A stretch of DNA of 64,000 bases from an uncultured Pseudomonadota bacterium (GTDB lineage Bacteria; Pseudomonadota; Gammaproteobacteria; Methylococcales; Methylomonadaceae), in contig CAIYSZ010000025.1 of NCBI GenBank assembly GCA_903928965.1, positions 1-64,000 on the forward strand, read 5' to 3'. This document shows positions 13,381 to 36,616 of the stretch, piece by piece. The notes beneath the pieces are model-generated. The model was not told where the DNA came from, did not search any database, and saw only the letters and a list, made by a program, of their open reading frames with translations. Both the position numbers and the translations under genes were made by a program. Positions within the stretch are counted from its first letter, which is position 1. Each line of letters begins with the position of its first letter.

Positions 13381-13428
13381 TGGAGCTGGTGACAGGATTT
13401 GAACCCACGACCGGCTGATTACAAATCA
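13381..13428 (-). repeat. Left attachment site: 3' fragment of tRNA-Thr
   Basis: 48 nt identical to 37391-37438, running from the CCA-encoding end through the T-arm to the anticodon loop. Identity stops abruptly (AAGCGC here, GCTGCT in the tRNA), so this is not a functional tRNA. It marks the left island boundary. Confidence 0.9.
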
Positions 13429-13576: not shown

Positions 13577-13631
13577 TTTTTGCCGTGAACCCCAGGAAAT
13601 CAGGGGCCTAAAGGTGCTTCAGGAGGCTAAC

Positions 13632-15141: not shown

Positions 15142-17187
15142 TCAATCACTAAGCGCCTTAAGCAGAGCATCCCGCCCATCTTGATAGAACTCAATATCTA
15201 GCTTAGTCGCCATTTCATCGGACAGCTCAAACAATTGTCGGCGACATGATACCGGCAATAATAGCGCCTGGGCTCCTTTCTCGACCGCAATCTCCGCCAA
15301 GTTAACCGCGTTATGAATCGGCTCAATGGCGCCGCCCAATGTCACTTCACCCACCACAACAAGTCCACCGCGCACCGATTTCTTTAACAAAGCGCTAGCC
15401 AAAGCAATCAGCGCGGCCACTCCCGTTTTTGCGCCGGACTTGGCGGCGTCAAAACTTCTCAGTTGCACCGAGAACTCATGCGCGCGCGGCTCACGGTCAC
15501 CTACCAATTGCTGCGCGCGCGCATACAGATTTTGTTCCGCGCAACGAATGGATTCCCTAAAAGCCGCTGGCGTCGGGTTGTTGAGCACCCGCACGCCATT
15601 CCCGGGGCCTTCGTTCACCTCCAGTCGGAACAGGCCTGGGTTTTCATCCTGACCGCCTGGACTAAGTGTCCAAATTTGCCCGCACTCCAGCGGCTCGTCG
15701 CCGATACTGCCCTGACTTTGCAGTTCCGGCGTGCCGACAAATTTTTCCACGCCTTCCGCGCCCATCGTATAACTGAAGTGGGTATTTCGAAACTCCGCCG
15801 CGCCGATACGTTTTTGCTGCTCCTTAACACGTCGACGCACTTCCAAAGCCAAGCGCACGGCCCATTCCAAATCCTCGTCACTGACCGGTGTTTCGGCATC
15901 GGGATATAGGAGTTTCAGCAATGCGCTAACGGTTTTGTTAACCCCGTTCAGATCACGTCCCGAAAGCGCGCCCCCCCAATACACTCGCCCCTGTAATGTC
16001 GATATTCGGCTTTGGCCGCGCAATTGAGTAAAACACTCGGATAAAAAATCGCTAACCAAGCCAAAATGATTAGTAAACAAACCTGGATTAAGCTTGGGCA
16101 CATCCCAACCAGGCAAATAGCAATGAATCCGATCCATAAAAGCGGTATCGTCGCGCATCTCCGGCGGCAACGGCCCCAATAAATGCCCAATCCGCTGCTG
16201 ATGCTCGACATCGACATCAAAATTGCCCACCAGCACGATGGAGCCGTCCGCGCGAATGCTTTCCTTGCCTCGGGAAAACTCTCCGCTCTCCATATACCCT
16301 TTCATGATATTAACGCCATCTTTCTGGTCGAAAGACACGCCCGACACTTCATCGAAGCAAACCACATCGTATTGGCAAACTAACCCACGTTGACCGCTGG
16401 CGTTATTAACAAACATCCTCGCCACCGTCGCCTTACCGCCCGATATAAGGTGCGCGTAGGGCGAGACTTGTTGAAACAGATGCGATTTACCCGTTCCGCG
16501 CGGCCCAAGTTCCACCAGGTTGTAATTACGTTCGACAAAAGGCGCCATACGCAACAGTAACGCATCCTTGGCGCGATCGGATAAGGTCTGCGGCTCAAAA
16601 CCCACGCTCCGCAACAAAAAATCACGCCACTCACTGGATGTAAATCGATGACGCCCCATCGACAATATTTCCAATACCTCCCGCTTAGACAACTGTATAG
16701 CGCGCAATGCCTCCACGCCGAACGGCCTGCCGTTTTTTTCCTGAGCAATCGACGCATCGTAGCCCAAGGTAACCTCGGCATAAAAACCGCCGGTCAACAT
16801 GCGTTCGTTATCCTTTACCATGTCCGGGGACAAGCGCACGTCGTTCAACCGCAAACTAGGCAAACTAGCCAGATATGAATCCGTCCTGGCGTCTAAACGC
16901 GCCGTAATAATATCAATGATTTTAACCGAGCCAGATTCGCGGGCGCGCGCCTTGAACAGCTCTTCTTCCCCGGCCTTGATAGTTCGCGAGCTAAGTTGTC
17001 GCTGCACAATATCCAGTCCCTCCTGAATTTCGGCTTCATCCGTTGTCGCGCAATAACGCCCAAGCAAAAATTCAACCACATAGGTGGGCACTGGAAATTG
17101 CCGGCTGAAAGTACGGACTAAGTCCTTACGCACCACATAGCCTTCAAAGGCAGAGGCGGCTTTGCGATCCAATTCATCCAGTTGCAT
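15142..17187 (-). CDS. brxL: BREX protein BrxL (AAA+ ATPase with Lon-like C-terminal domain)
   Basis: 681 residues, the usual size for BrxL. The AAA+ core has Walker A GPRGTGKS at residues 228-235 and Walker B VVCFDEVSG. The C-terminal domain has the Lon-protease fold (GGLVVVGEVTLGGAIEPIH). At the place of the Lon serine (GPSAG) it has GAKTG (585-589), and the downstream Lon lysine position reads HNAVN, so the canonical Ser-Lys dyad appears absent. BrxL is required for phage exclusion in type I BREX and acts as a DNA-associated AAA+ machine. It is the last gene of the operon, starting 2 nt after the pglZ stop. Confidence 0.93.
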   Translation of the reverse strand: MQLDELDRKAASAFEGYVVRKDLVRTFSRQFPVPTYVVEFLLGRYCATTDEAEIQEGLDIVQRQLSSRTIKAGEEELFKARARESGSVKIIDIITARLDARTDSYLASLPSLRLNDVRLSPDMVKDNERMLTGGFYAEVTLGYDASIAQEKNGRPFGVEALRAIQLSKREVLEILSMGRHRFTSSEWRDFLLRSVGFEPQTLSDRAKDALLLRMAPFVERNYNLVELGPRGTGKSHLFQQVSPYAHLISGGKATVARMFVNNASGQRGLVCQYDVVCFDEVSGVSFDQKDGVNIMKGYMESGEFSRGKESIRADGSIVLVGNFDVDVEHQQRIGHLLGPLPPEMRDDTAFMDRIHCYLPGWDVPKLNPGLFTNHFGLVSDFLSECFTQLRGQSRISTLQGRVYWGGALSGRDLNGVNKTVSALLKLLYPDAETPVSDEDLEWAVRLALEVRRRVKEQQKRIGAAEFRNTHFSYTMGAEGVEKFVGTPELQSQGSIGDEPLECGQIWTLSPGGQDENPGLFRLEVNEGPGNGVRVLNNPTPAAFRESIRCAEQNLYARAQQLVGDREPRAHEFSVQLRSFDAAKSGAKTGVAALIALASALLKKSVRGGLVVVGEVTLGGAIEPIHNAVNLAEIAVEKGAQALLLPVSCRRQLFELSDEMATKLDIEFYQDGRDALLKALSD

Positions 17188-17189
17188 GC

Positions 17190-19520
17190 TTATTCTCCTA
17201 CCGTGGTCATTTGTTTTTGCAACACTTCATCACCCGCGTCAAGCACCACAACAACAGCGGCCACGCCCATCAATTCATCATCGGCCACCGCTAGGCTAGC
17301 CTTACTCTCTTTTAACGACTTAACGCTGGAAACAATAGACGTCGAGGCCAAGGCGGCCTTGCTGCGAATATCAACGCGCAAATCATCCGACGCGCCATCA
17401 ACAATTACAGTACAACGCAGCCCCTTCCAGGTTACGGATTGAATACTGACTAAATTGGCGGCTTCAATGGCGCCCGCGCAATCTAGTTGTATTACCGGCG
17501 CCAGACATTCTTGCAAACTAAGGCCGCCATGCGCGTATTCCATGCCAGCGATAAAACAAGACACCCCAGGCGCAAACGCCACCTGCACATCATGATGCCA
17601 ATCCCAGCCAAAAGTCAGTGGGGCAGCGTGCGCGCTATCCTTCAATATTGCGCAACGGCCCCAGCGCGTTTCCACCTGATGCTTGGCTAATTCCGATTTA
17701 GGCAAACCACCCGGCATCAACAGCCAACCATGATCGGTCACGATGCGCATGCGCCGCCAACCCGCATCAAGCAGTTCAACAACGCGCTCTAAAACCTGAT
17801 TAAGTTGGCTATCAAGATCACGCGCCAAGCGCACCCCATGTTCATGCCCATAATGGTCCAGATCCCCAACTTCCGTCCAAGCCAGACCTTGCGGATCACC
17901 CGTCTCATGTTTGTCTAGCGCTTGCACGCCATGTTCGCTTAACAGCTTGCGAAAATTGAAGCCGGATAGCGGCTTGCCGTCCGCGGCAACCCTAGGCTCG
18001 AACTCCAAATCCTCCACCGCACCCGTAATGTATTCAGTCACCGGCGAACACCAGGCTTTTCCTGACGCCGTGACAGAAGGTAAACTGGTCCAGCGCGCCG
18101 AGAGACTAGCGTTACCGAAATCGTCAAGCTTTTGCTTAAGCAGTATCGCCGCATCATAACGCAAGCCATCCACGAAAACCGTACACGTTCCAGCAGCAAC
18201 CATGTCCGACGCTATCAAGGGTAAACCACCCACGGCCTTGGCGGCCTCTTGCAATCGGCGCGCCGTCTCATCTAGCCACGGCATATACATTACACGCAAC
18301 GCCGTGCCCACTGCCTCCAAATCGGCCTTTGCCTGCACACAAGCCAACGCGCGCAACGCCGCCAAGTCAACATTCCAGCCACTAAGCTGGTAACTATTGG
18401 CCAATTCGGCAGGCGTTTGACCAATCGGCAAGCTAGCGCTACCCTTGGCCACCTCAACCAAATATTCTAGCGCGGCGGCCAATGGGGCACGCCCCATGCG
18501 TATCCACAACCAGGCACGGCGCATGCCGTGTTCCTCTTCAGCCGCCAAAATAGCCGCGCGTGCCTGAGACGCATCCATGCCAGCGGATGCCGATAAGCTA
18601 GCGCGCAAGGAGCATTCACTTTGCTCGTTAACTTGCGGATAACCCGCCAACACAGCATAATCCGGAAATAAATCCCAATGCGGCGCGGGAAGCTTGGCCA
18701 ACCAATCAAACACACTAGGAAAGCTTGCAAATGAATCCTGATACAGCTCGGCGACAGCCGCCCATTTACCATGACCTTTAGCCAAACGCTCGGTCGCCGC
18801 CAGCACGCCATCCGTCACCGGATCGAAACCGAAATCCGATTTACAGCGTTTGACAAACACCGCCCACAACACATCCCCCCATTGCTGGCGCGAGACTTCC
18901 GGTTGATTCATCCACAGCAGCACATCGCGATTGGGATTTGGGGCCAGGAAACCGAGCAGCCATTCCGAATTAATGACGCGCCCCTGCAGATCATCCAAAT
19001 TGCACTCTAATAGCAACCCCGCCCGCAAAGCCTGCGCCAATGCCTCCTGAGTCGCCTTGTCCTGAGCTACATTTAAACCCAAACCACCATTTTTCGACGC
19101 CAGAAAAGCGCTCACTGTCCAATCCTTAGCGTTGGCCTGACTCCAGAACACGCCACGATACTGTAATTCCGCCAAAGGTTGCAGGTCGCGCGGGCAGCTT
19201 TCTATGGCGCGCAATTCGGCACGACTCACGCCGGGCAAATAGATCACCGGGACGCCATCAAACTGAACCTCGGGCAGCAGGCCGGCAATCGCGCACTTAA
19301 GCCAGATGGCTGGGCCGCTGCGTTGCTCGGGAAAATAGGCGCCAAGTACGAATAAGCCGGGCATTAAAGCCGTCAAGGCAGGTACGGCGGATTGCCACTG
19401 ACCGTCCTTATCCGGCCACAAAATGGCGGCAACCGGCGCGGACGTCTGTGAATTGCCTTTTGCGCAAGCGTTCAAGGCTGCCCGCAGCGCATCAGCCAGT
19501 GATTGACGACTAATTGTCAT
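17190..19520 (-). CDS. pglZ: BREX protein PglZ (alkaline-phosphatase-fold)
   Basis: 776 residues. The PglZ domain begins around residue 445 with TVFVDGLRYDAA (Asp451, Asp456) and continues to RIVTDHGWLLMPGG (Asp596, His597), the metal-binding signatures of the alkaline-phosphatase superfamily. The N-terminal 400 residues are helical and Ala/Leu-rich. PglZ is the defining core protein of BREX and associates with the methyltransferase and BrxB. Its ATG overlaps the TGA of the upstream HNH gene (ATGA), which ties the inserted module translationally to the BREX core. It is followed immediately by brxL. Confidence 0.94.
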   Translation of the reverse strand: MTISRQSLADALRAALNACAKGNSQTSAPVAAILWPDKDGQWQSAVPALTALMPGLFVLGAYFPEQRSGPAIWLKCAIAGLLPEVQFDGVPVIYLPGVSRAELRAIESCPRDLQPLAELQYRGVFWSQANAKDWTVSAFLASKNGGLGLNVAQDKATQEALAQALRAGLLLECNLDDLQGRVINSEWLLGFLAPNPNRDVLLWMNQPEVSRQQWGDVLWAVFVKRCKSDFGFDPVTDGVLAATERLAKGHGKWAAVAELYQDSFASFPSVFDWLAKLPAPHWDLFPDYAVLAGYPQVNEQSECSLRASLSASAGMDASQARAAILAAEEEHGMRRAWLWIRMGRAPLAAALEYLVEVAKGSASLPIGQTPAELANSYQLSGWNVDLAALRALACVQAKADLEAVGTALRVMYMPWLDETARRLQEAAKAVGGLPLIASDMVAAGTCTVFVDGLRYDAAILLKQKLDDFGNASLSARWTSLPSVTASGKAWCSPVTEYITGAVEDLEFEPRVAADGKPLSGFNFRKLLSEHGVQALDKHETGDPQGLAWTEVGDLDHYGHEHGVRLARDLDSQLNQVLERVVELLDAGWRRMRIVTDHGWLLMPGGLPKSELAKHQVETRWGRCAILKDSAHAAPLTFGWDWHHDVQVAFAPGVSCFIAGMEYAHGGLSLQECLAPVIQLDCAGAIEAANLVSIQSVTWKGLRCTVIVDGASDDLRVDIRSKAALASTSIVSSVKSLKESKASLAVADDELMGVAAVVVVLDAGDEVLQKQMTTVGE

Positions 19521-20122
19521 AGCAACCCCTGGCGTTGGGCTTCATACCAGACAAACGGAGAAAGCTGCTTCAGCATCTGCACATGCTTGTGTTGCAAATA
19601 CAGATAATAATGATTCAGCCGCATCCGGTTATGCTCCGGACTGTCAAGCTTCAACCGCTCAATGGTTTTACGCGCGAGCTCGGCGGCAAGTTTATTGAGA
19701 TTTGGATTAGGCGAAATCTCGCCGCTGGCCAAGTTCAAGACGAAGGTGTCCGCCGCCAAGCCAATAGGGTCCAGCACGTCGTCGTACTTGTTTTTATTCC
19801 GATTGGGGCCTAGGCAGGACAATCGGTAATTCGACCACTCATAGGCTTGACCGGCATCCTTGGATTTAGCTACAAAATGATCGGTCGAACTGGCTCCCGT
19901 TACCCACTCAAAGTAGATGGCCAGATAGGCGCAGACGCCGCCGTAAGCCTCCCAGAGCGCTTTATTTGAATGCGTCCAATAAGCCTCAATTTTGGTTTTA
20001 CTTGGCACGGGCCCGTTCGGGGCTATCCCATACGTCGCAAGCCACTTCAGTCCTGGCTGCCTGACTTTTGCATCAAAATCCGCCGGTTCCGGCTGTGGAC
20101 TAACAGGAATCATTCCAGCCAT
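19517..20122 (-). CDS. HNH-type nuclease, Septu PtuB-like
   Basis: 201 residues. The HNH core is visible as STDHFVAKS (Asp81, His82), then EWSNYRLSC (Asn98) and GPNRNKNKYDD (Asn at about 107-111). A CAY motif upstream (GVCAYLAIYF) resembles that of PtuB-type nucleases, but the zinc-binding CxxC pattern is incomplete. Paired with an upstream AAA ATPase, the arrangement matches the PtuA-PtuB (Septu) type, in which the ATPase restrains the nuclease until phage infection. It overlaps the ATPase stop by 13 nt and the pglZ start by 4 nt. The assignment to Septu rests on architecture, not on a search. Confidence 0.7.
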   Translation of the reverse strand: MAGMIPVSPQPEPADFDAKVRQPGLKWLATYGIAPNGPVPSKTKIEAYWTHSNKALWEAYGGVCAYLAIYFEWVTGASSTDHFVAKSKDAGQAYEWSNYRLSCLGPNRNKNKYDDVLDPIGLAADTFVLNLASGEISPNPNLNKLAAELARKTIERLKLDSPEHNRMRLNHYYLYLQHKHVQMLKQLSPFVWYEAQRQGLL

Positions 20123-21396
20123 CCCTTAGTCTTGCAGACATAGCGCCAATTAAATAAAAAGTTATCGGTCGGGCTTAACGCATTAATCAACGCTGCATGC
20201 ATGGCCTTGATCGCCTTGAGGTCTGGATCAGTCCTATCCAACAACTTGGCGGCTTCTTTGACCAATGCTTCGTATTCGACGGGGCGTCCACTCGCTAAAT
20301 CAAAGGCTTCACTCATCAGCCAGCCATCAGCATCGCCACGCTTTTCAAACGGACGGCGCGTCAACATCACACGCTTGCGTTCCAAATCTAAATCCCACCA
20401 AGCATCCAAGGCAGCATCAAACAACGGCTCCGCCGAAGCCATCACCAATGGCGAATGGGTTGCCGCAATCAATTGCAACTCCGCATTATTTTGTTTTACT
20501 AAAGTCCTAGCTACAGCCAGCAATGCCGGTATGATTTTACGCTGCCATTGCGGATGCAAATGGGACTCGACTTCGTCAATCAGCAACACCAGTTGTCGGC
20601 TTGGCTCTTCGTTCAGGAATTTAGCCGCCTTGCAATGTTCTTCCCAGGCCCAAACCAATACATAAGCCAGCGCAAGAATTCTGCGAATTCCGGCCGAGGC
20701 ATGCAATACAGCTACTTCCTGTCCATAAGGCATGCGAATAGTCGGGATGTCGCGCACATCATCCAGACTAATCCGTTTGAGTGCGCCAGGAACCAGCTGT
20801 TCTTTTTCAGATGGAGAAAGCGCAGCCAAAACCTTTTTCAACATGGCGTAAGCAGCGCTATTTTCCTTTTGCCAGCCAGCCCAATCCATCACCAGACCCA
20901 AACAAAGACGCTTGCCATCGTTATCCTCCAGGCCATCCCATACTTCGGCAGGGTTAAACACATAGGCAGGCGCCCGCTCTTGCACGTCCACATCGTTTTG
21001 AGTACGCCAGTAATTGCGCGCCGGGTCCCAAACCGCAAAGCTACCGTCCGACATGGCGTAGAATACCAGCCCCGGATTGGCGGGACGACCGGGCCTGCCA
21101 GTCTACGCTTGTTCACGCGGGCGGTACTCACTAACATAGTCCTCGGTCTTCACCTTACTGGTGAATGAAAAGCCAATAGTCGCCAGACCTTCCTTGGCCG
21201 GTAAGGCGCAACGACCCGCGGTTAGACGTGGATTGACCTCGCCCGGCCAGCGCCGCGTCATGGCCCACCAAGCGATATCCAGCAAAAAACTTTTACCTAG
21301 GCCGTTATCGCCGGTTATCAGATTGAGTCGTGGCGCTAATTCAAGCTCAAGCTTAGCGGCAGGCCCGACGTTATGGATTTGCAAATGTTTTAGCAT
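20110..21396 (-). pseudogene. AAA ATPase (Septu PtuA-like) interrupted by an in-frame TAG
   Basis: One reading frame of 428 codons with a single TAG at 21105-21103 (codon 98). Codons before it encode the ATPase N-terminus with Walker A GDNGLGKS (29-36). Codons after it continue without shift (TGRPGRPANPGLVFYA, then an internal ATG at 21054), with an ABC-like signature ASAGIRR, Walker B LVLLIDEVESHLHP (about residues 268-281) and the switch His in IAATHS. Nothing else is damaged, so a point change of a tryptophan codon (TGG to TAG) between GlnAla and ThrGly is likely. The 314-residue downstream piece lacks Walker A. It is preceded by AGAGGAG before the ATG at 21396 and coupled to the HNH gene. 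Alternatives are sequencing error or amber readthrough. Confidence 0.8.
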
Positions 21397-21426
21397 CGGG
21401 AAACTCCTCTAGCGGCTTATTTAAAC

Positions 21427-23337
21427 TCATTCACTAGACTCCAGTAAACCCATCTCAAACAGGAAGCGCGATGGGGCCTTACTCCAGCCGTTGTATCTTT
21501 CGCTGTAACTCATTGTGAGCGTTTCGATGGTTCGAGTGATGGCAACAAAGCAGTTCCTGCGTTCTTCCTGCATCTCCCGGCTGTCATCCCCTGACTTCTT
21601 ACTCTGGAAAGAGGGCAGTTGGTCCTCGGACATTCCGATCAGATAGACATGCGCAAACTCCAACCCTTTCGAACTGTGAATAGTCAGGCAGCGGACTGCG
21701 TTTGAAGGAGCCTCCGGAGTTTTGTTCGCCAATGCAAGCTCTTGCAGAAATTGCCCCAAGGACAACGAGTAAGCATCAGCTTCATCACCAATCTCGCGAA
21801 TGATACTTTGCCAAACAGATCGCTCCGTTGTGTACTCAGCGTACTGTTCATCCCGACCATTTCCAATCTCATCTTCGACATGATCGAAATAAGCTAAAGC
21901 TAACCGGATAAATACTACGTACTGGCCTCGAACCAAAGCCAAGACTGCTTGTTGAAGTTCTTTGGGTACAGCCGGAGTATTCATAACCAGCGCGCCAAGC
22001 GCCTCTAATTGATCGCCATTCAACGCAGCCGAGAAACTTGCGAGATCTTCTTCATTCGAATCCTGCTCTACACAGTCTGACAGAGCCTTAGTTACGGTGG
22101 ACGCCAAGTCGTCGTCTGACCGGACCAGCGCCAATTTCAAGGCGGAAGTCACAAAGCGCATTGGGGCACTCTCAAATTGGGACTTACGGCGTTGGACATG
22201 GCTAGGAATCGACAACGCATCTAGCGCTTTTTGTACTCGTTCCAAAAGCTTGGTGGCCCGCGCCAAGACGACAATTTCTGACGGACGCACACCGCTCTCC
22301 AGCCGCGCAGCCACAAGTTCTGCTATGCCTTGCGCCTCTAACTGATCGCTCTCAAAGGCCAGAATTTCTATAGGGTTTGAGCCAGTGCCTGCTTTCATTG
22401 AGAGCAACGGCTTTTTGTCTGGTGACCGTTCGCCGTTGTGTACGATCAGTGCGTTCGCCAGGGCAACCACCTCCGGAGGGCATCGATAGTTTTCGGGCAA
22501 TTGAATAGTGGTCAGGTCGTAGTGTTTTTCCAGTTCTCTTACGCGGGTCGGACTCGCACCATTCCATTGGTAAATCACTTGGTCGTCATCGCCTACGATG
22601 AAGACGTTTGCATCTTTATCAGGAGCAAGAGCACGAAGCACATGGTACTGTGCGACATTAGTGTCTTGGAACTCGTCCACACAGATGTAGCGGTAAACCG
22701 TTCTTAACTGCTTGCTGACGCGCGGCCGGTCGCGAAGCAATTCCTCGCAGAAGTATAGAATGGACCCGTAATCTAGGCAATTCTGCTGTTTCAAAAGTTC
22801 TTTGTAACGGACGAAGAGGGTTTGAAGCTGTTGGCCAACCTCGGGGTCCTTTAACAACGAAGGAATTTTAGCGTCAGGTGTGACATTTCTCAGTAGAAAA
22901 TCAATGGCTGTCAGTGCTTTTTCCGCGGATACGAATTTTGTAAGCTCGTCAGCCTTGTCTTCCAACACTGACTTGATAATTCCGACACGCTCGGACTCTT
23001 CAAGGATTTCGAAGTCCGGACTCAGTCCAAAATGACTGCCATGTTGCCTTAGAATATCCGTCGCAAACGAATGGAAAGTCGTTAGCAGAACCCTGTCTTT
23101 TGCTTCTGGCACCAACTTCAGCAGACGTTCTCGCATTTCTGCTGCGGCCTTCCTTGTGAATGTAAGACAGAGAATTCGAAATGATTCTTCGCGACCCTCT
23201 TCGACAAGTCGTGCAACACGTGAAGTAAGGGTAGCAGTCTTACCGGAGCCTGGCCCTGCCAGAACGAGGAGAGGACCAGTGTTCCATTGGGCTGCAGCGA
23301 GCTGATTTGAGTTGAGCTTATTTAGGTAGTCCATCAT
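21427..23337 (-). CDS. gajB: UvrD/Rep-type helicase, Gabija GajB-like
   Basis: 636 residues of superfamily 1A helicase. Motif I AGPGSGKT (27-34), motif Ia LTFTRKAAAEM, motif II VDEFQDTN, motif III VGDDDQVIYQWNGA, motif IV region LPENYRCP, and motif V/VI region CLTIHSSKGLEFAHV are all present. In Gabija, the GajB helicase-like subunit works with the OLD-family nuclease GajA; bacillus GajB is shorter (about 490). Its ATG overlaps the TGA of the OLD gene by 4 nt (ATGA), strongly indicating a pair. A general UvrD repair role is less likely given this coupling and the position inside BREX. Confidence 0.8.
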   Translation of the reverse strand: MMDYLNKLNSNQLAAAQWNTGPLLVLAGPGSGKTATLTSRVARLVEEGREESFRILCLTFTRKAAAEMRERLLKLVPEAKDRVLLTTFHSFATDILRQHGSHFGLSPDFEILEESERVGIIKSVLEDKADELTKFVSAEKALTAIDFLLRNVTPDAKIPSLLKDPEVGQQLQTLFVRYKELLKQQNCLDYGSILYFCEELLRDRPRVSKQLRTVYRYICVDEFQDTNVAQYHVLRALAPDKDANVFIVGDDDQVIYQWNGASPTRVRELEKHYDLTTIQLPENYRCPPEVVALANALIVHNGERSPDKKPLLSMKAGTGSNPIEILAFESDQLEAQGIAELVAARLESGVRPSEIVVLARATKLLERVQKALDALSIPSHVQRRKSQFESAPMRFVTSALKLALVRSDDDLASTVTKALSDCVEQDSNEEDLASFSAALNGDQLEALGALVMNTPAVPKELQQAVLALVRGQYVVFIRLALAYFDHVEDEIGNGRDEQYAEYTTERSVWQSIIREIGDEADAYSLSLGQFLQELALANKTPEAPSNAVRCLTIHSSKGLEFAHVYLIGMSEDQLPSFQSKKSGDDSREMQEERRNCFVAITRTIETLTMSYSERYNGWSKAPSRFLFEMGLLESSE

Positions 23338-25061: not shown

Positions 25062-28000
25062 CAAGTTTCCCCTTTAGCCGCGCGTTTCTCGGCCACCGTC
25101 AAATGATAATCATTAATCCGCTCACCGTGAAACTCCTGAAACCACGGCGCGCTAGCCACATCCTTGCCTCTATCCTTGTCCCAACTAATATTGAGCTTGG
25201 GCTTTTTGTTATGCCGCAACACCTCGGCGGTCATGAATGGGCGGATGTTCAACCGCACCCCGTCATTCAAATCCGGGTTCCAACCTATGGGCTGGTCGGC
25301 CAGCGGCTTCCAGCGCACAAAAATATCATACGGCGGCTCGCCTTCCAGGATCAGTTGCAGGCGGCGCTTCAAGTCTTGGGCGGCAGCCAAGCGGGTTTGC
25401 GCGCCGTCCACCCCGTCGCGCGCGCCAGCCTCTTGTTGCCGTATCCAGTCGCCCAAATAAGTGTGAATCAACCGCTCCAAATTCCTGGCGTCCAGCTTAT
25501 GGTAGTTCACCAGCGCGGCGAAGCCATCCTTCAACCCATCCCAGACATGCCAAATAAACGGCCGGTGGTGAAAACGCTTGGCGTGCTGCTCAAAAAACTT
25601 GTCGCGCAGCCACACCTCCAACCCCTTGCCGGCGCAGCCGGCGTCCGCCAGCAGCTTGTCCAATACCGAGGGCTTCCAGCTACCGGGCCGCACCGTTTCC
25701 CAGGCGGCGATCAACAGCTTGAGCAAGCGCTCATGCGCCGCCGGCTCGCCGCGCACCGAGGGCAGGCAGACAATGCCGTCGTCGTCGGTGTGCTCGGCCA
25801 GCTTCTCGCACTGAGCTATCCAGGCGCGCGCTTCATCGGCTAGCTCCATGTCCAGGTCGGTCTCGGCTGGCCAGTGGTAGCCGATTAACCGCGCCACCGC
25901 CACTTGCAGCGGGTCGGTGGCCGGTTGCGGGTGGCCGTGGAATAGCCATTGGGTGGGGTCGTCGGAATAGGGCTTGGGTAGGCCGTTGGGGAAGATCTCC
26001 GAGGCCAAATACCTCCAGTGAGCCAAGTCCACAGTAACCTCGACGAAGCTTTGGTCAGTAATCTTCAGTTGTTGATTAAATGAGCGCACATCATCATGAA
26101 AACTCGATGACGACATGTAAACCCAAAGCGCAGATGTGTCTGTTGAATTCGACGGGATGACGACACTGATGTTATTGTCGAACAAAGTTCCCTGGTACAG
26201 ACTGACCGGTAGCTTCCCGGTTGACGTTATCGCAATGCCGTGACGCCCCCATGCGTCGCCTCCCCTGAGCCATGAACCAACCTGGTTCTCGCCCAGGCGT
26301 TCCTCTAAGTAAGACAAGAATTCTCCTTCTCCACGTTGCCAATAAAAGACCTGAGACATGCCAGAAAACATCTGCGAACTGATAACAGTGCTTTGCTGAA
26401 ACACCCATGTTTCTTTGGACAGGGTGACTTCCCAGAATGTTTTACCGAACCGGTTGTAGTCACCGGAGCAGATTCCCAGATGGCTTGTCGCGTGGAGGTT
26501 AAGCAAAGTTCCCTTAACTCCCTCGGCCAAAATGACGCGTGCATCAGGATTACCCAGTTGTCCGTGTTGACTTACCATAAACATAACTTCCAGGCGAAGG
26601 CATTCAGCCTTTTCTTGCGTGCTCAAGGACGCGCTGGCATCCACACCAATCATCTGAAAGCCTTCGACTGCTCGTTCGCGGGTCTGGGTAAGCAGGATTG
26701 CTTGCACCACCTCGCCGCTGATGGTTTCAAACGCCCCAGGCCCTAACCGCGCTAGCAAATTCCATTGCACGCTCTTAAGCAAAGACTCGCGCTGCTTTTT
26801 ATAACTAGTCAGAAACAACCAATTCTGCGGCATCACAATTTGCACCACCCCGGCGCCGTGGTCGCGGCTCAGCTCCAAACAGCGCTCCAGAAACACATTG
26901 GCCAAGTCGTTCTTGGCTTGCGGGTAATGCGCCACGCAGTAATCTTTGAGCAGGTCGTTTTGCTTGCCGCGCGCCAAATAGGGCACATTGGTCACTACCA
27001 AGTGATAGCGGTCACCTAACAGCCGGGCCGCATCCAGTAAGCCCTTGGCGGTAAGCGCCAAGTCCCAGCCATCATCCTGCGATTCGCCAGCCTGTCCCGG
27101 CAAGGTAGCCGGACGCTCGGTCGCCAGCGCGCGCTCCAGCAATTCACGCAAGGCGTCAACGCTAGAGGTAGCCAAATCGTTGCGCAATACGCGCGCCGGG
27201 TCCAGTAAACTGCCCAGCAGCGGCGCTTGGGCAAAGCCTGCGTGCAGCAACTTTAATTCCTGCCGCGCTATGTCGGCGTCGGGCCAGTCGTTTGGAACCA
27301 AGGCCATCCAATTCTCGGGCTTGGCCGCCACCTTTAGGCCGCAACAGGCAATGCGCGGCGCGGGCATCTCGGCGCGCACGCCTAATGGCTGGCCGTTTTC
27401 GTCCGGGAAGCGCCAGGCCGCCAGCGCCAGCGCGAAAACAGCGATTTCCACGCAACGCGGGTCTAGCTCCAGCCCGTGCAGATTGTCCGCCAGCACCGCG
27501 TCCACCGCCTGCTTGGCGCTTAAACCTTCCTCCGCCATGCGCATCGGAACCAGCATCAAAAACGCCGCCACCAAAAAGTGGCCCGAACCGCAGCAAGGGT
27601 CTAGCAATTTGAATTCATCCAACTGGTTTGGCCAGCCTTCGAATTTACCGGCGGCGGGCGCGCCGTCGTCCAGCGTGCGCAAATAGGTTAGTGGAAATGG
27701 GCAGGTCTTGCCGGGGTGGCGCGTCACCCACCAAGCGCCCAGCGAGTTGTGCAGTAAAAAATCCACCATGTAGGGCTCGGTAAACAACTGCGTCACGGCG
27801 GGCAATTCGTCGGCGCCGATCTTCACTTCCGCGGCGTTCACCTCGTCCTTGCGTTTGGCTTGCCAGAACTGATACACCCAGCCCAGGCTATCGCTAGCCT
27901 GGAACACCTCCGGCGGCAATGCCGCCAGCAGCCGCTCCAGCGCGCGTTGCTGCTCGGGGGCGAAAACCAGCTCAAATACCGGGCTTTGCGGCTTGAACAC

Positions 28001-28456
28001 CTGCGGCAGCATGCGCGCCGCCAGCTTGCCGGCCAGTTCCCACTGGGTCTTGGCGCCTAAATTCAGCGCCGGGTCGGCTTCTTGGATTAGCGTGTCACAT
28101 TCCTCCAGCGACACTGCAACGCCCGGCTCCCATAGCAGCAAGCCGTTCTCGGCCAGAAAGCGGGCGAACAGCATGCGGTGCCAATGTTCGTAAGCCGTTT
28201 CCCAGACCAGCCGCCGCACCTCCTGAGTGTCGTCTCTGGCCTTAACATCGCCCAAGGCGCGGCCGTGCGCGCGCAAGCGGCGGCGCAAGGCCTTGAGTTC
28301 ATCCGTCAAATAAACGGGAGCCTTGGCTTCCGCCACGCCAATTTGGCTCAGCGCGGCCCGCGCCGCTTGCTCGGCGATTTCTCGAGCGGCTTTTACGGTG
28401 TTTTCCAATTGGCTGCGCAGCGGTTTTGCCAGTGGTTGGTTATGGTTGCTGTTCAT
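25061..28456 (-). CDS. pglX: BREX adenine-specific DNA methyltransferase PglX
   Basis: 1131 residues. The SAM-binding motif I reads LLDPCCGSGHF (284-294). The catalytic motif IV reads NVPY (490-493) in LVVTNVPYLARGK, in place of the commoner NPPY/F. The long C-terminal part would carry target recognition. PglX methylates one strand of a short BREX recognition site to mark self DNA. It sits 87 nt after brxC, and its stop overlaps the start of the OLD nuclease gene, so the inserted modules begin immediately after it. The identification is strong from length, motif I and the brxABC context. Confidence 0.93.
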   Translation of the reverse strand: MNSNHNQPLAKPLRSQLENTVKAAREIAEQAARAALSQIGVAEAKAPVYLTDELKALRRRLRAHGRALGDVKARDDTQEVRRLVWETAYEHWHRMLFARFLAENGLLLWEPGVAVSLEECDTLIQEADPALNLGAKTQWELAGKLAARMLPQVFKPQSPVFELVFAPEQQRALERLLAALPPEVFQASDSLGWVYQFWQAKRKDEVNAAEVKIGADELPAVTQLFTEPYMVDFLLHNSLGAWWVTRHPGKTCPFPLTYLRTLDDGAPAAGKFEGWPNQLDEFKLLDPCCGSGHFLVAAFLMLVPMRMAEEGLSAKQAVDAVLADNLHGLELDPRCVEIAVFALALAAWRFPDENGQPLGVRAEMPAPRIACCGLKVAAKPENWMALVPNDWPDADIARQELKLLHAGFAQAPLLGSLLDPARVLRNDLATSSVDALRELLERALATERPATLPGQAGESQDDGWDLALTAKGLLDAARLLGDRYHLVVTNVPYLARGKQNDLLKDYCVAHYPQAKNDLANVFLERCLELSRDHGAGVVQIVMPQNWLFLTSYKKQRESLLKSVQWNLLARLGPGAFETISGEVVQAILLTQTRERAVEGFQMIGVDASASLSTQEKAECLRLEVMFMVSQHGQLGNPDARVILAEGVKGTLLNLHATSHLGICSGDYNRFGKTFWEVTLSKETWVFQQSTVISSQMFSGMSQVFYWQRGEGEFLSYLEERLGENQVGSWLRGGDAWGRHGIAITSTGKLPVSLYQGTLFDNNISVVIPSNSTDTSALWVYMSSSSFHDDVRSFNQQLKITDQSFVEVTVDLAHWRYLASEIFPNGLPKPYSDDPTQWLFHGHPQPATDPLQVAVARLIGYHWPAETDLDMELADEARAWIAQCEKLAEHTDDDGIVCLPSVRGEPAAHERLLKLLIAAWETVRPGSWKPSVLDKLLADAGCAGKGLEVWLRDKFFEQHAKRFHHRPFIWHVWDGLKDGFAALVNYHKLDARNLERLIHTYLGDWIRQQEAGARDGVDGAQTRLAAAQDLKRRLQLILEGEPPYDIFVRWKPLADQPIGWNPDLNDGVRLNIRPFMTAEVLRHNKKPKLNISWDKDRGKDVASAPWFQEFHGERINDYHLTVAEKRAAKGET

Positions 28457-28543
28457 TGATTGTTCCGTTTAAAATCCAAGCCGACCTGTCTCGCCCGCTT
28501 GATACGTTAGCGCAGGTTTTGGGCTTAATGTCAGCGCCGTTGA

Positions 28544-31500
28544 TCATAACGCCACCGGCCCATGTTTAAGCTTGGCTTGCAGCAAGGTTTCAACCTCCAA
28601 CAACCAAGCTTTGAGTTCCGCTTCATCGTTTAGGGTGCGTTTGGGTAGCGCCACATGGATGATGTTGGGTTTCAGTAACTGGATAGCCGCGTGTCTGGCC
28701 GCCTCAAAGCGGTTAGGCAGGGCTTGGGTTCTGGACAGCCAATGCTCCAGATCGCAGTCGTCTAGCGCGTCCTGCAATTGCTCGGGGCTGCCGACTTGCG
28801 GCGCGCCGGGCGCGGAAAGGTTGTGCGTGGCGTAAAGATCGGCGCGTTGCGCTTCGCTCAACTGGTTCCAATCGGCGTCTGCGTCTAGTTGGGCTTGTTG
28901 CTGTGCAAAGGTTTGCTGAAAGACCGCTAGTTTGGCGTTTAGCGCTTGACGCAGCAAGTCTGCGGTTTTGTCCAGCACCGGCCGCACCAGGTCTGGATCG
29001 GCCAACAGGCAGCGCCGCGCCTCAATGGCCTCCACTTCGGCCTTAAGCGCGGCGTAAGGGGCCAAGGCTTTAGCGTGTTTCAGCAACTCGGTCAGTTGAT
29101 TCCACTCGGGCAGGCGTTTGGCTATGTCGGCGGCGGTTTTACTCCAGGTTTTGGACAGAGCCATCAACTCGTCGTAGCGGTTGAACAGTTCCAACAACTG
29201 CGCATTGCCGGTTTGCGCCTCAATAGCTTCTAAGGCTGTTAGCTTCGGCGCCTCCGGCGCCGGGGCAGGGCCGCCAGCGTTGAAGGCTTGCTCGCGCAAT
29301 TTGGCTAGTAGTATGGGCGTCTTGGACAATTCCTCCCGAGGTTGACAAGGCACGCCGACGGCGCTGAACAATCCGCGTATCTTAAGGAACTGTAGCGGCG
29401 TGATGTTCACGCTTTCACGCTGAAATTGGGTTTGGGTGAGCTTGGCGCGATCCAGACTCCTGGCGTCGACGGTTTTGGATGCGCCATCGGTCGCCTTGAT
29501 ATGGCCCGCGGCCAATAGGGCGTATAACGCGCCGTCAATGGCGTCTCGCGGCCAGCCAAACGGCGGCGCCTCGAAATTATCACGAATTTCGGCGCCCTTT
29601 TTGCCGGGGCCAATGTAGGCCAGTAACTTTTGGCAGACTGGATGCTTGTCTGCCTCCTGGCCATGCCCCACGGCCTTCATGGCATCCAGATTGCCCTTGC
29701 GCGCCTCGTCCAGCACCTTGCTCCAATGCTCGTGGTCGGCCGCGTCGAACTGGCTGTACAAACGAATGACGGATGATCTGGCCGCGCGGTTGATGCGGTC
29801 GGCAAGGTCATCGCCATCGAGTGCTTCCTGACCTCCGGCCTGGAATACCCGCACGCCGACGCAGAGTTGATCCAACAGTTCGCTTAACGCCTTTTCGGCG
29901 TTGCGTTGTCGGCTTTCCATTGAGCGCTGGGCGTCGCGTCCTTCCTCGGTACTGGGAGCGCCTTTTTTTTGTAGCGTGGCGCGCGCGGCTTCAAACGCCA
30001 CGATGGCGTTGCTTAGCTCGGTTTTATGCTGCGCGGGCATAAAGACAAACAGCGTGGGATTATCGGCGGGCTTGGCTTTAGCCTCGGCGATAACGGACTT
30101 TTCCTCGGTTTGCCAACCATCTTGAATCCACACATAAAGATGCTTATCGTGATCCTTGGGAAGGTAGTCGTCATGGGTAGGCGTCAGACGCCGCTCGACA
30201 TTGTCCTTGCCTTGTACAACCCGCACCTTCTTCAACACCTCGCCGAAACGAGACTTCAGCAAGTCGGCGCGTTTCTGCTCCACGCGCTGGGGCGCGGCGT
30301 TGAGTTCGGCTTCTTGCGCCCTGAATTCATCGTACCAAGCGCTGGACTCGCGCGTCTGTAGGCGATATTCCGCGCCGTTGCCGCCAGCGAGGGACATTAT
30401 TAGACGGTCTTTGTTTTGCAACTCATCCAGCAAACCGGGCAATTTTTTACGCAGTTCGGCGGAGCCAGCGGACAAATCGGTAACCAATAGGTCGGCCAGC
30501 GCATCCTCGGTGGCTTTCAGACCAATATCCATGGCGGCGTCGGCAGGCAATTTATTAATCAGGTAAATCAGTTTGAGCAGTTTGGCCTTGAGTTGGGCGC
30601 TGTCATCGCCAGCGGCAAAGCGTTGCACGTTCTCAAATACTTCCTTGGGGAGTTGCGCGGTCGAGACTAGGTTCGCCGCAATCTGATCATAAAGAAAATC
30701 GCCGGAAACGACGTGTCCCAACGGCGTTTCCGCCGTGGCCAACACTGCTTCATGCACCACGCGCAACTGGCTGCGAAGCTGGGACACGGTGCCGGTGGTG
30801 TCTATGGTTCTGAGCACGCGTTCCCAGAAACGGCGACGCACCGGCAGTAGTGGATAGTCCGAGCTTAGCACGGCTTCGTCGTCGGTGACGTGTTCGAGCT
30901 TGGTGCCGCGCAGATGGCGCGAAATTTCGCCCAGATTGTTACGCCAGATTTGCTCTATCGCCAATTGGGCCGATGGTTTCTTGGCCAGGATGATTTGCCG
31001 CGTGACATTCTCCACATCCCAGTCACCCAGCATCACTTGCACCGGAAACCGGCCCAGCAGGCGTTGCAAATTGGGCATGCCGGACAGCGCGGATTGACCA
31101 GTGCCGACAAACAACAGCTTGCCGTTAAAATGATTGCTCAGCGTCTCGGTGACTTCCTGAACTTGGAAGGCTTTCTCGGCGTCGTTGCCAATGTACTGCT
31201 GCACTTCGTCCAAAACAATCAGCGTCAACGGAAACTTGCCTTCCTCGGCAAGCGCCGCCGCGATGGCCGTGGTCATCTGTTCGCTGCTGATGTCGGTAAC
31301 CTGCGGAAATTGCTCTTTCAGCAATTTGCGAGCGTCGGTTTCATCGTGCGCCAGATTGGGTCTAATGGTCAATAAGGCTTTAGCCAGATGACTAGACACA
31401 TACATATGCGGCAGCTCTTGCGCCAATGAGCGGTTGGCGGATTTTAACTCGGCTTCGACACCGGACAGGATGTTCTCGCGTTTCATCCACATGACGAATT

Positions 31501-32005
31501 GCGCCTGATTGTATTGCTCCGGCAAACCTTTGGATTTGAATACTATACCTAGCAAAGCCAAACGCACCTTGTCGCCAGCCCCGGCGCCCAGTTTGCCAGC
31601 CGCAGCATGCAAGGCGCCGTAACGCCTGCCTTGAGTACTGAGCTCCTTCAGATGCTCAAACACGCTGGTAGGCAGTTTGGCCAGACCGCGCGCGGTGGCG
31701 CCGTCGGCGAACGGGTAGTCTGTCCACAGTGTGCGCAACATTTTGGCCAAGTGCGACTTTCCGCTACCGTAAAATCCGGATATCCAAACGCCCGGTTGCA
31801 CGGCACCGGCGTCAAGATTCATGAGAAACTTATCCAGAATGGTTTCCAAACCCTTTTCGTATTGGCCGTCGCAAACAAAAGTCTCCAATTCGTGACGCAA
31901 TATAGCCTGGGCCGCGGCGGAGTGGTCTTCGGATACTTCGGCGACTCCGTTATTGACCAAACGGTTTTCCTTGGGCGGTTTGATGTAAATATCCTTGTTC
32001 AGCAT
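28544..32005 (-). CDS. brxC: BREX ATPase BrxC (PglY-like)
   Basis: 1153 residues. Walker A GFYGSGKS at 77-84 in VWISGFYGSGKSHLAKML and Walker B LIVLDEVQQY at 262-271 identify the large BREX P-loop ATPase. The rest is helical with few recognisable motifs. BrxC is essential for BREX defence and interacts with other Brx proteins. It starts 33 nt after brxB and precedes pglX, the canonical type I order. Confidence 0.94.
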   Translation of the reverse strand: MLNKDIYIKPPKENRLVNNGVAEVSEDHSAAAQAILRHELETFVCDGQYEKGLETILDKFLMNLDAGAVQPGVWISGFYGSGKSHLAKMLRTLWTDYPFADGATARGLAKLPTSVFEHLKELSTQGRRYGALHAAAGKLGAGAGDKVRLALLGIVFKSKGLPEQYNQAQFVMWMKRENILSGVEAELKSANRSLAQELPHMYVSSHLAKALLTIRPNLAHDETDARKLLKEQFPQVTDISSEQMTTAIAAALAEEGKFPLTLIVLDEVQQYIGNDAEKAFQVQEVTETLSNHFNGKLLFVGTGQSALSGMPNLQRLLGRFPVQVMLGDWDVENVTRQIILAKKPSAQLAIEQIWRNNLGEISRHLRGTKLEHVTDDEAVLSSDYPLLPVRRRFWERVLRTIDTTGTVSQLRSQLRVVHEAVLATAETPLGHVVSGDFLYDQIAANLVSTAQLPKEVFENVQRFAAGDDSAQLKAKLLKLIYLINKLPADAAMDIGLKATEDALADLLVTDLSAGSAELRKKLPGLLDELQNKDRLIMSLAGGNGAEYRLQTRESSAWYDEFRAQEAELNAAPQRVEQKRADLLKSRFGEVLKKVRVVQGKDNVERRLTPTHDDYLPKDHDKHLYVWIQDGWQTEEKSVIAEAKAKPADNPTLFVFMPAQHKTELSNAIVAFEAARATLQKKGAPSTEEGRDAQRSMESRQRNAEKALSELLDQLCVGVRVFQAGGQEALDGDDLADRINRAARSSVIRLYSQFDAADHEHWSKVLDEARKGNLDAMKAVGHGQEADKHPVCQKLLAYIGPGKKGAEIRDNFEAPPFGWPRDAIDGALYALLAAGHIKATDGASKTVDARSLDRAKLTQTQFQRESVNITPLQFLKIRGLFSAVGVPCQPREELSKTPILLAKLREQAFNAGGPAPAPEAPKLTALEAIEAQTGNAQLLELFNRYDELMALSKTWSKTAADIAKRLPEWNQLTELLKHAKALAPYAALKAEVEAIEARRCLLADPDLVRPVLDKTADLLRQALNAKLAVFQQTFAQQQAQLDADADWNQLSEAQRADLYATHNLSAPGAPQVGSPEQLQDALDDCDLEHWLSRTQALPNRFEAARHAAIQLLKPNIIHVALPKRTLNDEAELKAWLLEVETLLQAKLKHGPVAL

Positions 32006-32038
32006 AGTCGTTATTGCCTGTTTCTTGTGTGCGTGGGT

Positions 32039-32602
32039 TTAGTCCTGGGCCAGCAGCGGCACGGCGAGATAATTCCAGCCGTCGCGCGCATCCAGCAGAC
32101 GGTAGGTGTGATTTTCCGGGTAATGTTCGCCAGGGAAAAACACTAGCAAACGGCCTGGCACGGCTTCCTTGACGCCTTCCACTACTGACGACACGCGCGC
32201 CAGTCCAAACAGCGCGCCAACGCCCAGCAAGGCCACCACGGTGTCTGGCCCGGCGTCGGCGGCGATTCTGGCTTTCAATCGAGTGTTGAGATCCGCGACG
32301 AATTCGGTCAATTCGCCCGTCTGATAACCCGCTAAATCCTCGGGTGACTCAAAGTAGGCCGCGCGATACTCTTGCGCCGCCATCCACTCTGGAAAAGCAT
32401 TGGTCACATCCAGCAGCAGCCATTGCTTGCCTGCCTGCTGTGTAACTAATGCAAACTCTTCGACGTTGGCGCGTAGGCGCAATTCGTCGGTTTTGTCGTA
32501 AACCGCGAAGATAACCCGCTGGATGGCGGCAAGCCCGGCTTGCCAAGGGACGGTAAGGTGTCGCCGATAGGCGGCTGCTAATTTGTTAACCTTTGATGAC
32601 AT
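32039..32602 (-). CDS. brxB: BREX protein BrxB (DUF1788)
   Basis: 187 residues, standard for BrxB. Recognisable parts include ALLGVGALFGLARVSSVVE and RLLVFFPGEHYPENHTYRLL, the latter characteristic of DUF1788. Its start overlaps the brxA stop by 17 nt. BrxB bridges other BREX components, including PglZ; it has no enzymatic motif. Confidence 0.92.
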   Translation of the reverse strand: MSSKVNKLAAAYRRHLTVPWQAGLAAIQRVIFAVYDKTDELRLRANVEEFALVTQQAGKQWLLLDVTNAFPEWMAAQEYRAAYFESPEDLAGYQTGELTEFVADLNTRLKARIAADAGPDTVVALLGVGALFGLARVSSVVEGVKEAVPGRLLVFFPGEHYPENHTYRLLDARDGWNYLAVPLLAQD

Positions 32603-33470
32603 GCGAGACCTGTTGACGAATAAGCTCTTCTTCGGATGTTAAATAGCCAGGGAAACGCAATTCCTTAACGCCACCGGCGTTCATAAACACCAATAGCCCG
32701 CGATGCGCCGCCGCGCTGGCAAGAGATTCTAGTTCGTCCAACGCGAGGCATAAAACATTCAGCCACTCCGAAGAGAACAGTCTTTGTCCGGTGCGACCTT
32801 CCAGAAAACCCAGAAATAATAGCATGGCGATAGACTCGGGATGTGGCGGCGGCAATGCGCGAATCTTGCGCCCGCGCCCTTGCAACAGGCCGGCGGCCGT
32901 CCAGGTCCCCGCGACATTCTGCGCGAAGGATTTTAACGAGGCAGAACTAAAACGCTCCGAGCAAGAAGCGCCGAGGAAGTTTTCAATCAGATTTCGCGGC
33001 ACCGCTACGCCTACTGGTTGCTCTAAAACAAACGCCTGAGTGCCGCGTAGCAAGGGATCTCGGGCTAGCGCGACCGCCAACGCCAACATGGGTTGCGCCG
33101 CTTCATTAAACAACCAAAGGTGACGTAGCGCGCGAAAAATAGGGTTGCCTGGATCAAGCGCATAAAGGGTCGCCATATGTCGAAAGGCCAACTCGCGCGA
33201 TTTACGTGTAGGCTTGCCGAGCACATTGTTATCGACTATTGCGGCGGAATAATCGGCGCGGGATGCTTGCGGACGGGTATTGGCCAGCAGCAATCGCAGA
33301 TCGTCCAACATCATGGTTCGCGCCGCATGCGGCCCGTTGATGCCGAAACGAAAACCTAGTTGGATGAGAAATGCTTGGCGTACTTCGATCACGCAATACT
33401 TACTCTTGATTTTTGGAAGGCCGCTACCCTCACGCAGCTCTTTACTTGATGAGGAATATTTATACCGCAT
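32586..33470 (-). CDS. brxA: BREX protein BrxA (DUF1819)
   Basis: About 294 residues from ATG 33470 (MRYKYSSSSKEL). The frame is open to ATG 33590, but that extension is hydrophobic and unlike BrxA. Landmarks such as RELAFRHMATLYALDPGNPIF and the C-terminal EEELIRQQVSHVIKG agree with DUF1819, a DNA-binding winged-helix-type protein. It is the first gene of the defence operon and is divergent from the gene at 33534, leaving 63 nt for both promoters. There is no clear ribosome site before the chosen ATG. Confidence 0.85.
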   Translation of the reverse strand: MRYKYSSSSKELREGSGLPKIKSKYCVIEVRQAFLIQLGFRFGINGPHAARTMMLDDLRLLLANTRPQASRADYSAAIVDNNVLGKPTRKSRELAFRHMATLYALDPGNPIFRALRHLWLFNEAAQPMLALAVALARDPLLRGTQAFVLEQPVGVAVPRNLIENFLGASCSERFSSASLKSFAQNVAGTWTAAGLLQGRGRKIRALPPPHPESIAMLLFLGFLEGRTGQRLFSSEWLNVLCLALDELESLASAAAHRGLLVFMNAGGVKELRFPGYLTSEEELIRQQVSHVIKG

Positions 33471-35673: not shown

Positions 35674-35685
35674 TGGAGACGCAAC

Positions 35686-36495: not shown

Positions 36496-36553
36496 GAACC
36501 AACAAGTACAAACACACTCAAGCAATTGATTATAAATAATTTGTTCAAAAATA

Positions 36554-36596
36554 TTTTTGCCGAGTTGATTAAAATAACAAACGATTTCGGCAAAAA
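36554..36596. repeat. Perfect 10-bp inverted repeat upstream of the zinc-ribbon gene
   Basis: TTTTTGCCGA (36554-36563) pairs with TCGGCAAAAA (36587-36596) around a 23-nt AT-rich loop. It ends 20 nt before the ATG of the next gene, so it could terminate the upstream operon or control the downstream gene. Confidence 0.45.
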
Positions 36597-36616
36597 GTGA
36601 AAACAGGAAAAACAAC

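What the first reader, a model, noticed from the sequence alone, without database searches (positions are those of the whole stretch)
15142..33470. One operon nests Gabija-like and Septu-like modules inside a type I BREX system
Seen: brxA-brxB-brxC-pglX on the right and pglZ-brxL on the left are separated by an OLD-TOPRIM nuclease, a UvrD-like helicase, an AAA ATPase and an HNH nuclease. From pglX to brxL, junctions are overlaps of 1-13 nt, a 2-nt gap or a spacer of about 30 nt. Known: OLD plus UvrD is the Gabija pair; AAA ATPase plus HNH is the Septu pair; BREX loci tolerate insertions between core genes. Inference: three anti-phage systems are co-expressed from one promoter and may act in layers (epigenetic exclusion plus nuclease backup), perhaps sharing PglX marking or nucleotide sensing. 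The ATGA junctions into pglZ suggest long-term integration of the inserts, not a recent hop.
Basis: partly seen in the sequence, partly recalled or inferred. Interest (0 to 1): 0.85.

Follow-up and report, generated by a model that had tools for sequence, protein, structure and literature searches.

The report
BREX operon with swappable defence inserts
A bacterium carries a mobile anti-phage island in which two extra defence gene pairs sit inside a BREX operon; such inserts are a known and common arrangement, and here one of the two pairs has a broken key gene.

Summary
The gene order is real: brxA-brxB-brxC-pglX, a GajA/GajB-like pair, a PtuA/PtuB-like pair, pglZ-brxL, all on the minus strand. 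One point was missed: the PtuA-like ATPase gene is cut by an in-frame TAG after codon 97, where 10 of 10 aligned relatives have tryptophan. As assembled, the Septu-like pair is probably dead; the Gabija-like pair keeps its motifs. The operon lies on a ~24 kb element bounded by a 48-nt repeat of the tRNA-Thr 3' end, with an integrase gene.

Genes between pglX and pglZ are already published: ~7,000 of ~9,000 genomes (Went et al. 2024), and OLD-ATPase/nuclease modules in BREX are catalogued (Rakesh & Krishnan 2026). This is a new member of a known kind.

Added here: inserts >300 nt at 65/70 pglX-pglZ and 34/76 brxC-pglX junctions but 0/187 other core junctions. Of 17 locus pairs with >=90% identical backbones, 2 carry the same cargo and 6 share any. 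PtuAB rejects the backbone tree; GajB does not. ATGA seams occur with many unrelated cargos, so they do not show long residence.

The parts
13381..13428 (.). left direct repeat: 48-nt exact copy of the 3' part of tRNA-Thr (attachment-site-like)
13614..14987 (+). integrase-like gene (Arm-DNA-bind_3 over cut-off; Phage_int_M below cut-off)
15142..17187 (-). brxL (BrxL_N, BrxL ATPase, Lon C-terminal domain)
17190..19520 (-). pglZ
   Evidence: 962 bits; Pfam PglZ below cut-off
19517..20122 (-). ptuB-like HNH protein, intact reading frame; DHF and N..K positions kept
20110..21396 (-). ptuA-like OLD/ABC ATPase gene, interrupted by an in-frame TAG at 21103-21105
21427..23337 (-). gajB-like UvrD-family helicase
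23334..25064 (-). gajA-like OLD-family ATPase with TOPRIM domain
25061..28456 (-). pglX (brxX) N6-adenine methyltransferase
28544..32005 (-). brxC
32039..32602 (-). brxB
   Evidence: Pfam BrxB below cut-off
32586..33470 (-). brxA (start taken at ATG 33470; the open frame reaches 33590)
33534..37261 (+). four divergent ORFs of the element without a Pfam or PADLOC match
37391..37466 (-). tRNA-Thr (TGT), integration target; its 48 nt 37391-37438 are the right direct repeat

Best explanation
This is a type I BREX operon carried by an integrative element in tRNA-Thr. The space between pglX and pglZ is a cargo slot where unrelated defence modules are exchanged, most likely by homologous recombination in the flanking BREX genes. 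Here the slot holds a Gabija-like pair and a Septu-like pair. BREX methylates its own sites through PglX and blocks unmethylated phage DNA with the other BREX proteins. The Gabija-like pair is an independent second layer: a GajA-like TOPRIM nuclease with a UvrD-like helicase, by analogy with Gabija. The Septu-like pair would have been a third layer (ATPase-controlled HNH nuclease), but the stop codon in ptuA separates Walker A from Walker B, so it is probably inactive. Shown: genes, motifs, stop codon in the assembly, repeats, slot statistics, tree conflict for PtuAB. Inferred: one transcript, activity, independence of the layers, loss of Septu function, the recombination mechanism.
For: Families. 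Stop codon; TAG ends 5 of 20 hand-picked window ORFs outside the operon and 0 of the 10 operon genes. In E. coli Septu, mutants of Walker A, Walker B or the HNH motif lose immunity (PMC13096335, passages). Slot: inserts >300 nt at 65/70 pglX-pglZ and 34/76 brxC-pglX junctions, 0/62 brxA-brxB, 0/63 brxB-brxC, 0/62 pglZ-brxL; 150 of 155 insert ORFs >=200 aa on the sense strand. Turnover: of 17 pairs with >=90% backbone identity 2 have the same cargo, 6 share any; L042/L059 are 92.7% identical in DNA up to about the end of pglX and 92.4% again from ~220-260 nt into pglZ, with unrelated cargo between. PtuAB rejects the backbone tree. Element. Independent layering has a precedent in BrxU plus BREX.
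Against: No transcript or phage data. The stop could be an assembly or sequencing error: it is the only lesion and both halves stay open. GajB data fit the backbone tree (AU p about 0.5), and GajA rejects it with L030 as the only row placed differently, so exchange is shown for PtuAB only. In the PtuAB test some backbone rows were partial: brxC missing in L085, brxL missing in L108 and short in L091, brxC half in L048. The change counts on the backbone tree had no shuffled control, and the sample is one genome per species. The empty site was not found: 11 of 35 relatives with the left-flank gene were examined and none had a tRNA within ~1.5 kb. The promoter scan found no more sites than chance (10 against a mean of 11.4).
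Confidence: 0.75

Rival explanations
1. All three systems are functional: the TAG is a sequencing or assembly error, or is read through, and the operon gives three working layers.
For: Only one lesion in ptuA; both halves open; about 70% identity to L091 and L077; ptuB intact.
Against: TAG ends 5 of 20 checked window ORFs, so it is an ordinary stop here. No read data or second strain were available. The genome's second BREX has its own Septu-type pair with open frames, which could relax selection on this one.
Confidence: 0.25
2. The inserts are guards wired to BREX: they fire when a phage protein inhibits PglX/BREX, as proposed for PARIS and Ocr, and their place beside pglX serves that wiring.
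For: Inserts are confined to the pglX-pglZ and brxC-pglX junctions; PARIS in Salmonella BREX and the backup-effector proposal of PMC12839542.
Against: BrxU protects without PglX; deleting ariA/ariB did not weaken Salmonella BREX and PARIS was not triggered by Ocr there; ATPase/DUF4435 deletions do not change StySA methylation. Cargo families are diverse and turn over.
Confidence: 0.15
3. The inserts entered once and have been inherited with this BREX backbone.
For: GajB does not reject the backbone tree; gajAB sits next to pglX in 6 of 6 loci, the window included.
Against: PtuAB rejects the backbone tree (AU p about 1e-60); ptuAB in 10 of 63 taxa needs 10 changes on the backbone tree, gajAB in 6 needs 4 (no shuffled control); 4-nt-overlap seams occur with 9-10 different cargo clusters.
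Confidence: 0.1

Closest known systems
Genes between pglX and pglZ in BREX (Went et al. 2024, PMC11341690)
   Same: Same position; of ~9,000 genomes with co-localised pglZ and pglX ~7,000 have genes between; ~5,000 of these hold no known system, and in the other ~2,000 15.98% hold BrxU and 2.21% PARIS homologues (section 6 read).
   Different: The section read does not name Gabija or Septu; supplementary Fig. 1 was not available to me.
Auxiliary and backup effectors in BREX (Rakesh & Krishnan 2026, PMC12839542)
   Same: OLD-ABC with TOPRIM (Gabija/PARIS) and OLD-ABC with HNH dyads encoded inside BREX loci (section 35 part 1 read).
   Different: Passages found by term searches gave no statement on this double stack, the exclusivity of the slot, or cargo exchange; the whole text was not read.
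pEFER BREX with BrxU (Picton et al. 2021, PMC8565348)
   Same: An extra nuclease in a BREX island, giving a second independent layer (passages).
   Different: GmrSD-type enzyme; no Gabija- or Septu-like pair seen in the passages.
StySA / Salmonella BREX with an ATPase + DUF4435 pair (PMC9009780; PARIS in PMC11341690)
   Same: A two-gene ATPase-plus-effector cassette between pglX and pglZ (passages; section 6).
   Different: Different families; one module.
Gallionella sp. STB_49 locus L091
   Same: pglX-gajA-gajB-ptuA-ptuB-...-pglZ in the same order.
   Different: ptuA intact; an extra GmrSD-like gene before pglZ; [quoted passage not shown]

Membership tests
type I BREX | brxA, brxB, brxC, pglX, pglZ, brxL in one locus | tested here: met
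   PADLOC matches for all six, nearly full length for five and for brxA from profile position 151 of 421
type I BREX | PglX methyltransferase motifs | tested here: met
   DPCCGSGHF and NVPY; NVPY is the norm here, 80 of 82 sequences
type I BREX | site-specific N6mA and phage exclusion | not testable with these tools
   needs methylome and phage assays
Gabija | GajA: OLD-type ATPase plus TOPRIM domain | tested here: met
   AAA_15 and OLD-like_TOPRIM over cut-off; PADLOC GajA 909 bits; GajA chains are the best PDB sequence matches, 47 bits
Gabija | GajA catalytic motifs kept (motif names recalled) | tested here: met
   Walker A GENN(C/S)GKTT, EEPEAHLHP, GEGETE and D457/D459: invariant in 6 of 6 except the C/S position
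Gabija | adjacent GajB UvrD-family helicase | tested here: met
   PADLOC GajB 934 bits; but by sequence it is nearer UvrD/PcrA than the solved 493-499-aa GajB
Gabija | nucleotide-controlled DNA nicking and phage defence | not testable with these tools
   biochemistry needed
Septu | PtuA ATPase next to PtuB HNH | tested here: met
   PADLOC PtuA 432 bits for the 3' ORF alone, PtuB 222 bits
Septu | intact PtuA with Walker A and B in one chain | tested here: not met
   in-frame TAG after codon 97 separates them in the assembly
Septu | HNH residues in PtuB | tested here: met
   DH, YEWxN and N..K positions present in 13 of 13 aligned sequences, the window and two non-BREX plasmid homologues (L109, L110) included; the usual zinc cysteines are partly missing (motif recalled)
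tRNA-integrated genomic island | integrase plus direct repeat of a tRNA 3' end at both borders | tested here: met
   48-nt exact repeat, integrase gene starting 185 nt inside it
tRNA-integrated genomic island | empty site in relatives | tested here: inconclusive
   0 of 11 relatives examined (of 35 with the left-flank gene) had a tRNA near it

The most novel reading that the evidence does not exclude
Type I BREX acts as a chassis with two fixed bays (brxC-pglX and pglX-pglZ). Defence modules are swapped through these bays as translationally coupled cassettes much faster than the BREX backbone diverges. The bays flank the specificity factor PglX because cargo output must be balanced against PglX and PglZ, so that BREX and cargo form one regulated unit.
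Probability: 0.25. Interest if true: 0.65.

Novelty: new member of a known kind. Interest (0 to 1): 0.4.

Why it matters
It gives a concrete, testable case of layered defence in one operon and shows that the layering is modular: the same slot takes unrelated effectors, nearly always on the sense strand and often with overlapping seams. The strict choice of junction (0 of 187 elsewhere in this set) and the turnover between close backbones make it possible to ask why BREX tolerates or needs cargo beside PglX. The broken ptuA warns against counting 'three systems' from gene names alone.

Tried and rejected
Chance adjacency or unrelated families: rejected.

Plasmid or viral carriers of this GajA or PtuB: no match in plasmids at E<=1e-60 for GajA; in viral contigs none of the six exact peptide patterns of GajA or of PtuB was found, which reaches close relatives only; no near-identical plasmid DNA. 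PtuA had 5 hits in the plasmid collection; the best (63.5%) lies in another BREX (L108). H2 and H4 (44.7% and 47.3%) have no annotated BREX within 8 kb (that annotation is incomplete); H3 and H5 were not opened.

The >=64% ones were found through pglX. Suggestive only; I do not claim it.

Readthrough or an unusual code: TAG ends 5 of 20 checked ORFs; a suppressor tRNA was not searched for.

Internal promoters and terminators: 10 and 23 sites against shuffle means of 11.4 and 26.1, so not informative.

Empty site: not found. Copies of the tRNA-Thr 3' end also occur in several relatives, not followed up.

Limits: only the 80 best of 426 pglX relatives were kept, chosen by closeness to this pglX. 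Of these, 70 hold both pglX and pglZ. For the backbone tree 72 were considered (the 70, L108 and the window) and 63 had brxC and pglZ frames over 500 aa; L085, which holds ptuAB, fell out. Cargo families are single-linkage clusters of mechanical ORFs, named from one scanned representative each; some clusters have no named family, and neighbouring clusters may be parts of one system, so '33 of 70 with two or more' counts clusters grouped by me, not proven systems. For the PtuA codon, L100 was a weak, different ATPase and was dropped; L098's tryptophan was read from the alignment. Junction distances are between match edges; cargo starts are the first start codon of the frame.
Full report
What is there. 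The minus strand of 15142-33470 holds brxA-brxB-brxC-pglX-gajA-gajB-ptuA-ptuB-pglZ-brxL. PADLOC best matches are BrxC 1598 bits, PglX 1620, BrxL 997, PglZ 962, GajB 934, GajA 909, PtuA 432 (3' ORF only), BrxA 412, BrxB 246, PtuB 222. Sequence searches of solved structures give GajA as the best match for the OLD-TOPRIM protein, retron and Septu PtuA-type ATPases for the intact L091 PtuA, UvrD/PcrA first and GajB further down for the helicase, and only weak matches (E 0.05 and above) for PtuB.

The broken gene. The PtuA-like gene spans 20110-21396 but has an in-frame TAG at 21103-21105. The 97-residue 5' part carries Walker A; the rest carries Walker B. In the ten aligned relatives found with the pglX loci the residue at this place is tryptophan in 10 of 10, and all ten frames are open, nine of 425-433 aa and one (L094) of 552 aa. 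TAG ends 5 of 20 hand-picked window ORFs outside the operon and none of the ten operon genes. In E. coli Septu both Walker motifs of PtuA and the HNH of PtuB are needed (PMC13096335, passages), so the pair is probably inactive, unless the stop is an assembly error, which I cannot exclude. A stop in ptuA might also reduce translation of the coupled ptuB, pglZ and brxL (inference).

A second copy of the theme. The same genome has another type I BREX on contig 7: a brxC end, a HEC-02-like pair, pglX, a PtuA/PtuB pair of a different clade, pglZ and brxL; its brxA and brxB were not identified. Its PtuA frame is open (445 aa). So this genome has two BREX loci, each with a Septu-type pair between pglX and pglZ, and one of the two pairs is broken.

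The element. A 48-nt exact repeat links 13381-13428 with 37391-37438, the 3' part of tRNA-Thr; a 25-nt repeat links 13552-13576 with 37312-37336. An integrase-like gene lies at 13614-14987. The operon therefore travels, or travelled, on a ~24 kb element.

The slot. I took 80 relatives of pglX with up to 10 kb flanks. At the edges of tblastn matches, inserts over 300 nt occur at 65 of 70 pglX-pglZ junctions and 34 of 76 brxC-pglX junctions, but at 0 of 62 brxA-brxB, 0 of 63 brxB-brxC and 0 of 62 pglZ-brxL junctions. Insert ORFs of at least 200 aa are on the sense strand in 150 of 155 cases. The first insert overlaps pglX by exactly 4 nt in 31 of 64 slots (24 ATGA, 6 GTGA, 1 TTGA; 9 cargo clusters), and the last insert overlaps pglZ by exactly 4 nt in 24 of 64 (20 ATGA, 3 GTGA, 1 TTGA; 10 cargo clusters). 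By cluster, 26 of 70 slots hold GmrSD-like genes, 11 Ppl-like, 9 this Septu clade, 7 another Septu clade, 7 at least one gene of a trio that includes an Hsp70-like protein, 6 HEC-01-like, 5 the Gabija-like pair, and others; 33 of 70 hold two or more recurrent modules as I grouped them. Stacking is thus ordinary. In these 70 slots the Gabija-like pair plus this Septu clade occur together once, in L091; L030 has the Gabija-like pair plus the other Septu clade.

Exchange. Of 17 locus pairs whose brxC+pglZ are at least 90% identical, 2 have the same cargo and 6 share any cargo cluster; pairs are not independent of each other. DNA comparison of such pairs shows sharp edges: L042 and L059 are 92.7% identical up to about the end of pglX and 92.4% again from about 220-260 nt into pglZ, with unrelated cargo between; L057 differs from L064 by one extra cargo gene between pglX and a shared GmrSD-like gene. 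In 7 of the 8 pairs compared (all but L042/L059) a stretch of about 0.5-1.3 kb in the middle of pglX does not align, consistent with exchange of target-recognition regions. For 11 loci with this PtuAB, the window included, the PtuAB data reject the brxC+pglZ+brxL tree (AU p about 1e-60), and the backbone data reject the PtuAB tree (p 3e-5); the pglX data reject both. The window's PtuAB groups with L091/L077 (support 93) while its backbone groups with L085/L048 (support 100). Some of these backbone rows were partial. On a 63-taxon backbone tree ptuAB (10 taxa) needs 10 changes and gajAB (6 taxa) 4; I ran no shuffled control. Against a general claim: GajB fits the backbone tree, and GajA differs from it only in the placement of L030.

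What is already known. Went et al. 2024 report that ~7,000 of ~9,000 genomes with co-localised pglX and pglZ have genes between them (PMC11341690 section 6). Rakesh & Krishnan 2026 describe OLD-ABC/TOPRIM, Gabija and OLD-ABC/HNH modules in BREX loci as auxiliary or backup effectors (PMC12839542 section 35 part 1). Picton et al. 2021 showed that BrxU and BREX protect independently (PMC8565348, passages). My paper searches and the passages I read found no description of this exact stack or of the junction exclusivity; the library lacks many journals, and I saw no supplements, so that is weak evidence of absence.

Verdict. It is a new member of a known kind, with useful numbers on how the slot behaves.

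Noticed in passing
G000 contig 7, L117 and L150: A second type I BREX in the same genome with a HEC-02-like pair between brxC and pglX and a Septu-type pair with open frames between pglX and pglZ.
   Followed up: partly
L029 and L050 (and other close pairs): Backbones and Gabija-like cargo closely similar, but a stretch in the middle of pglX does not align, as if the target-recognition part had been exchanged.
   Followed up: partly
window 33534-37261: Four plus-strand ORFs of the element with no Pfam or PADLOC match; the second has a GSGKT-like loop, read by eye.
   Followed up: no
window 37391-37466 and relatives: Copies of the tRNA-Thr 3' end (about 45-48 nt) in several relatives, some within a few kb of the intact gene, suggesting an integration hotspot.
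   Followed up: no
L023, L024, L043, L047, L051, L052, L059: A recurrent module with an Hsp70-like protein in the pglX-pglZ slot (all three genes in six of these loci, one in L047), without a PADLOC match for the three representatives scanned.
   Followed up: partly
window 19517-20122 and relatives: PtuB of this clade lacks part of the usual zinc cysteines but keeps the HNH positions (usual motif recalled).
   Followed up: partly
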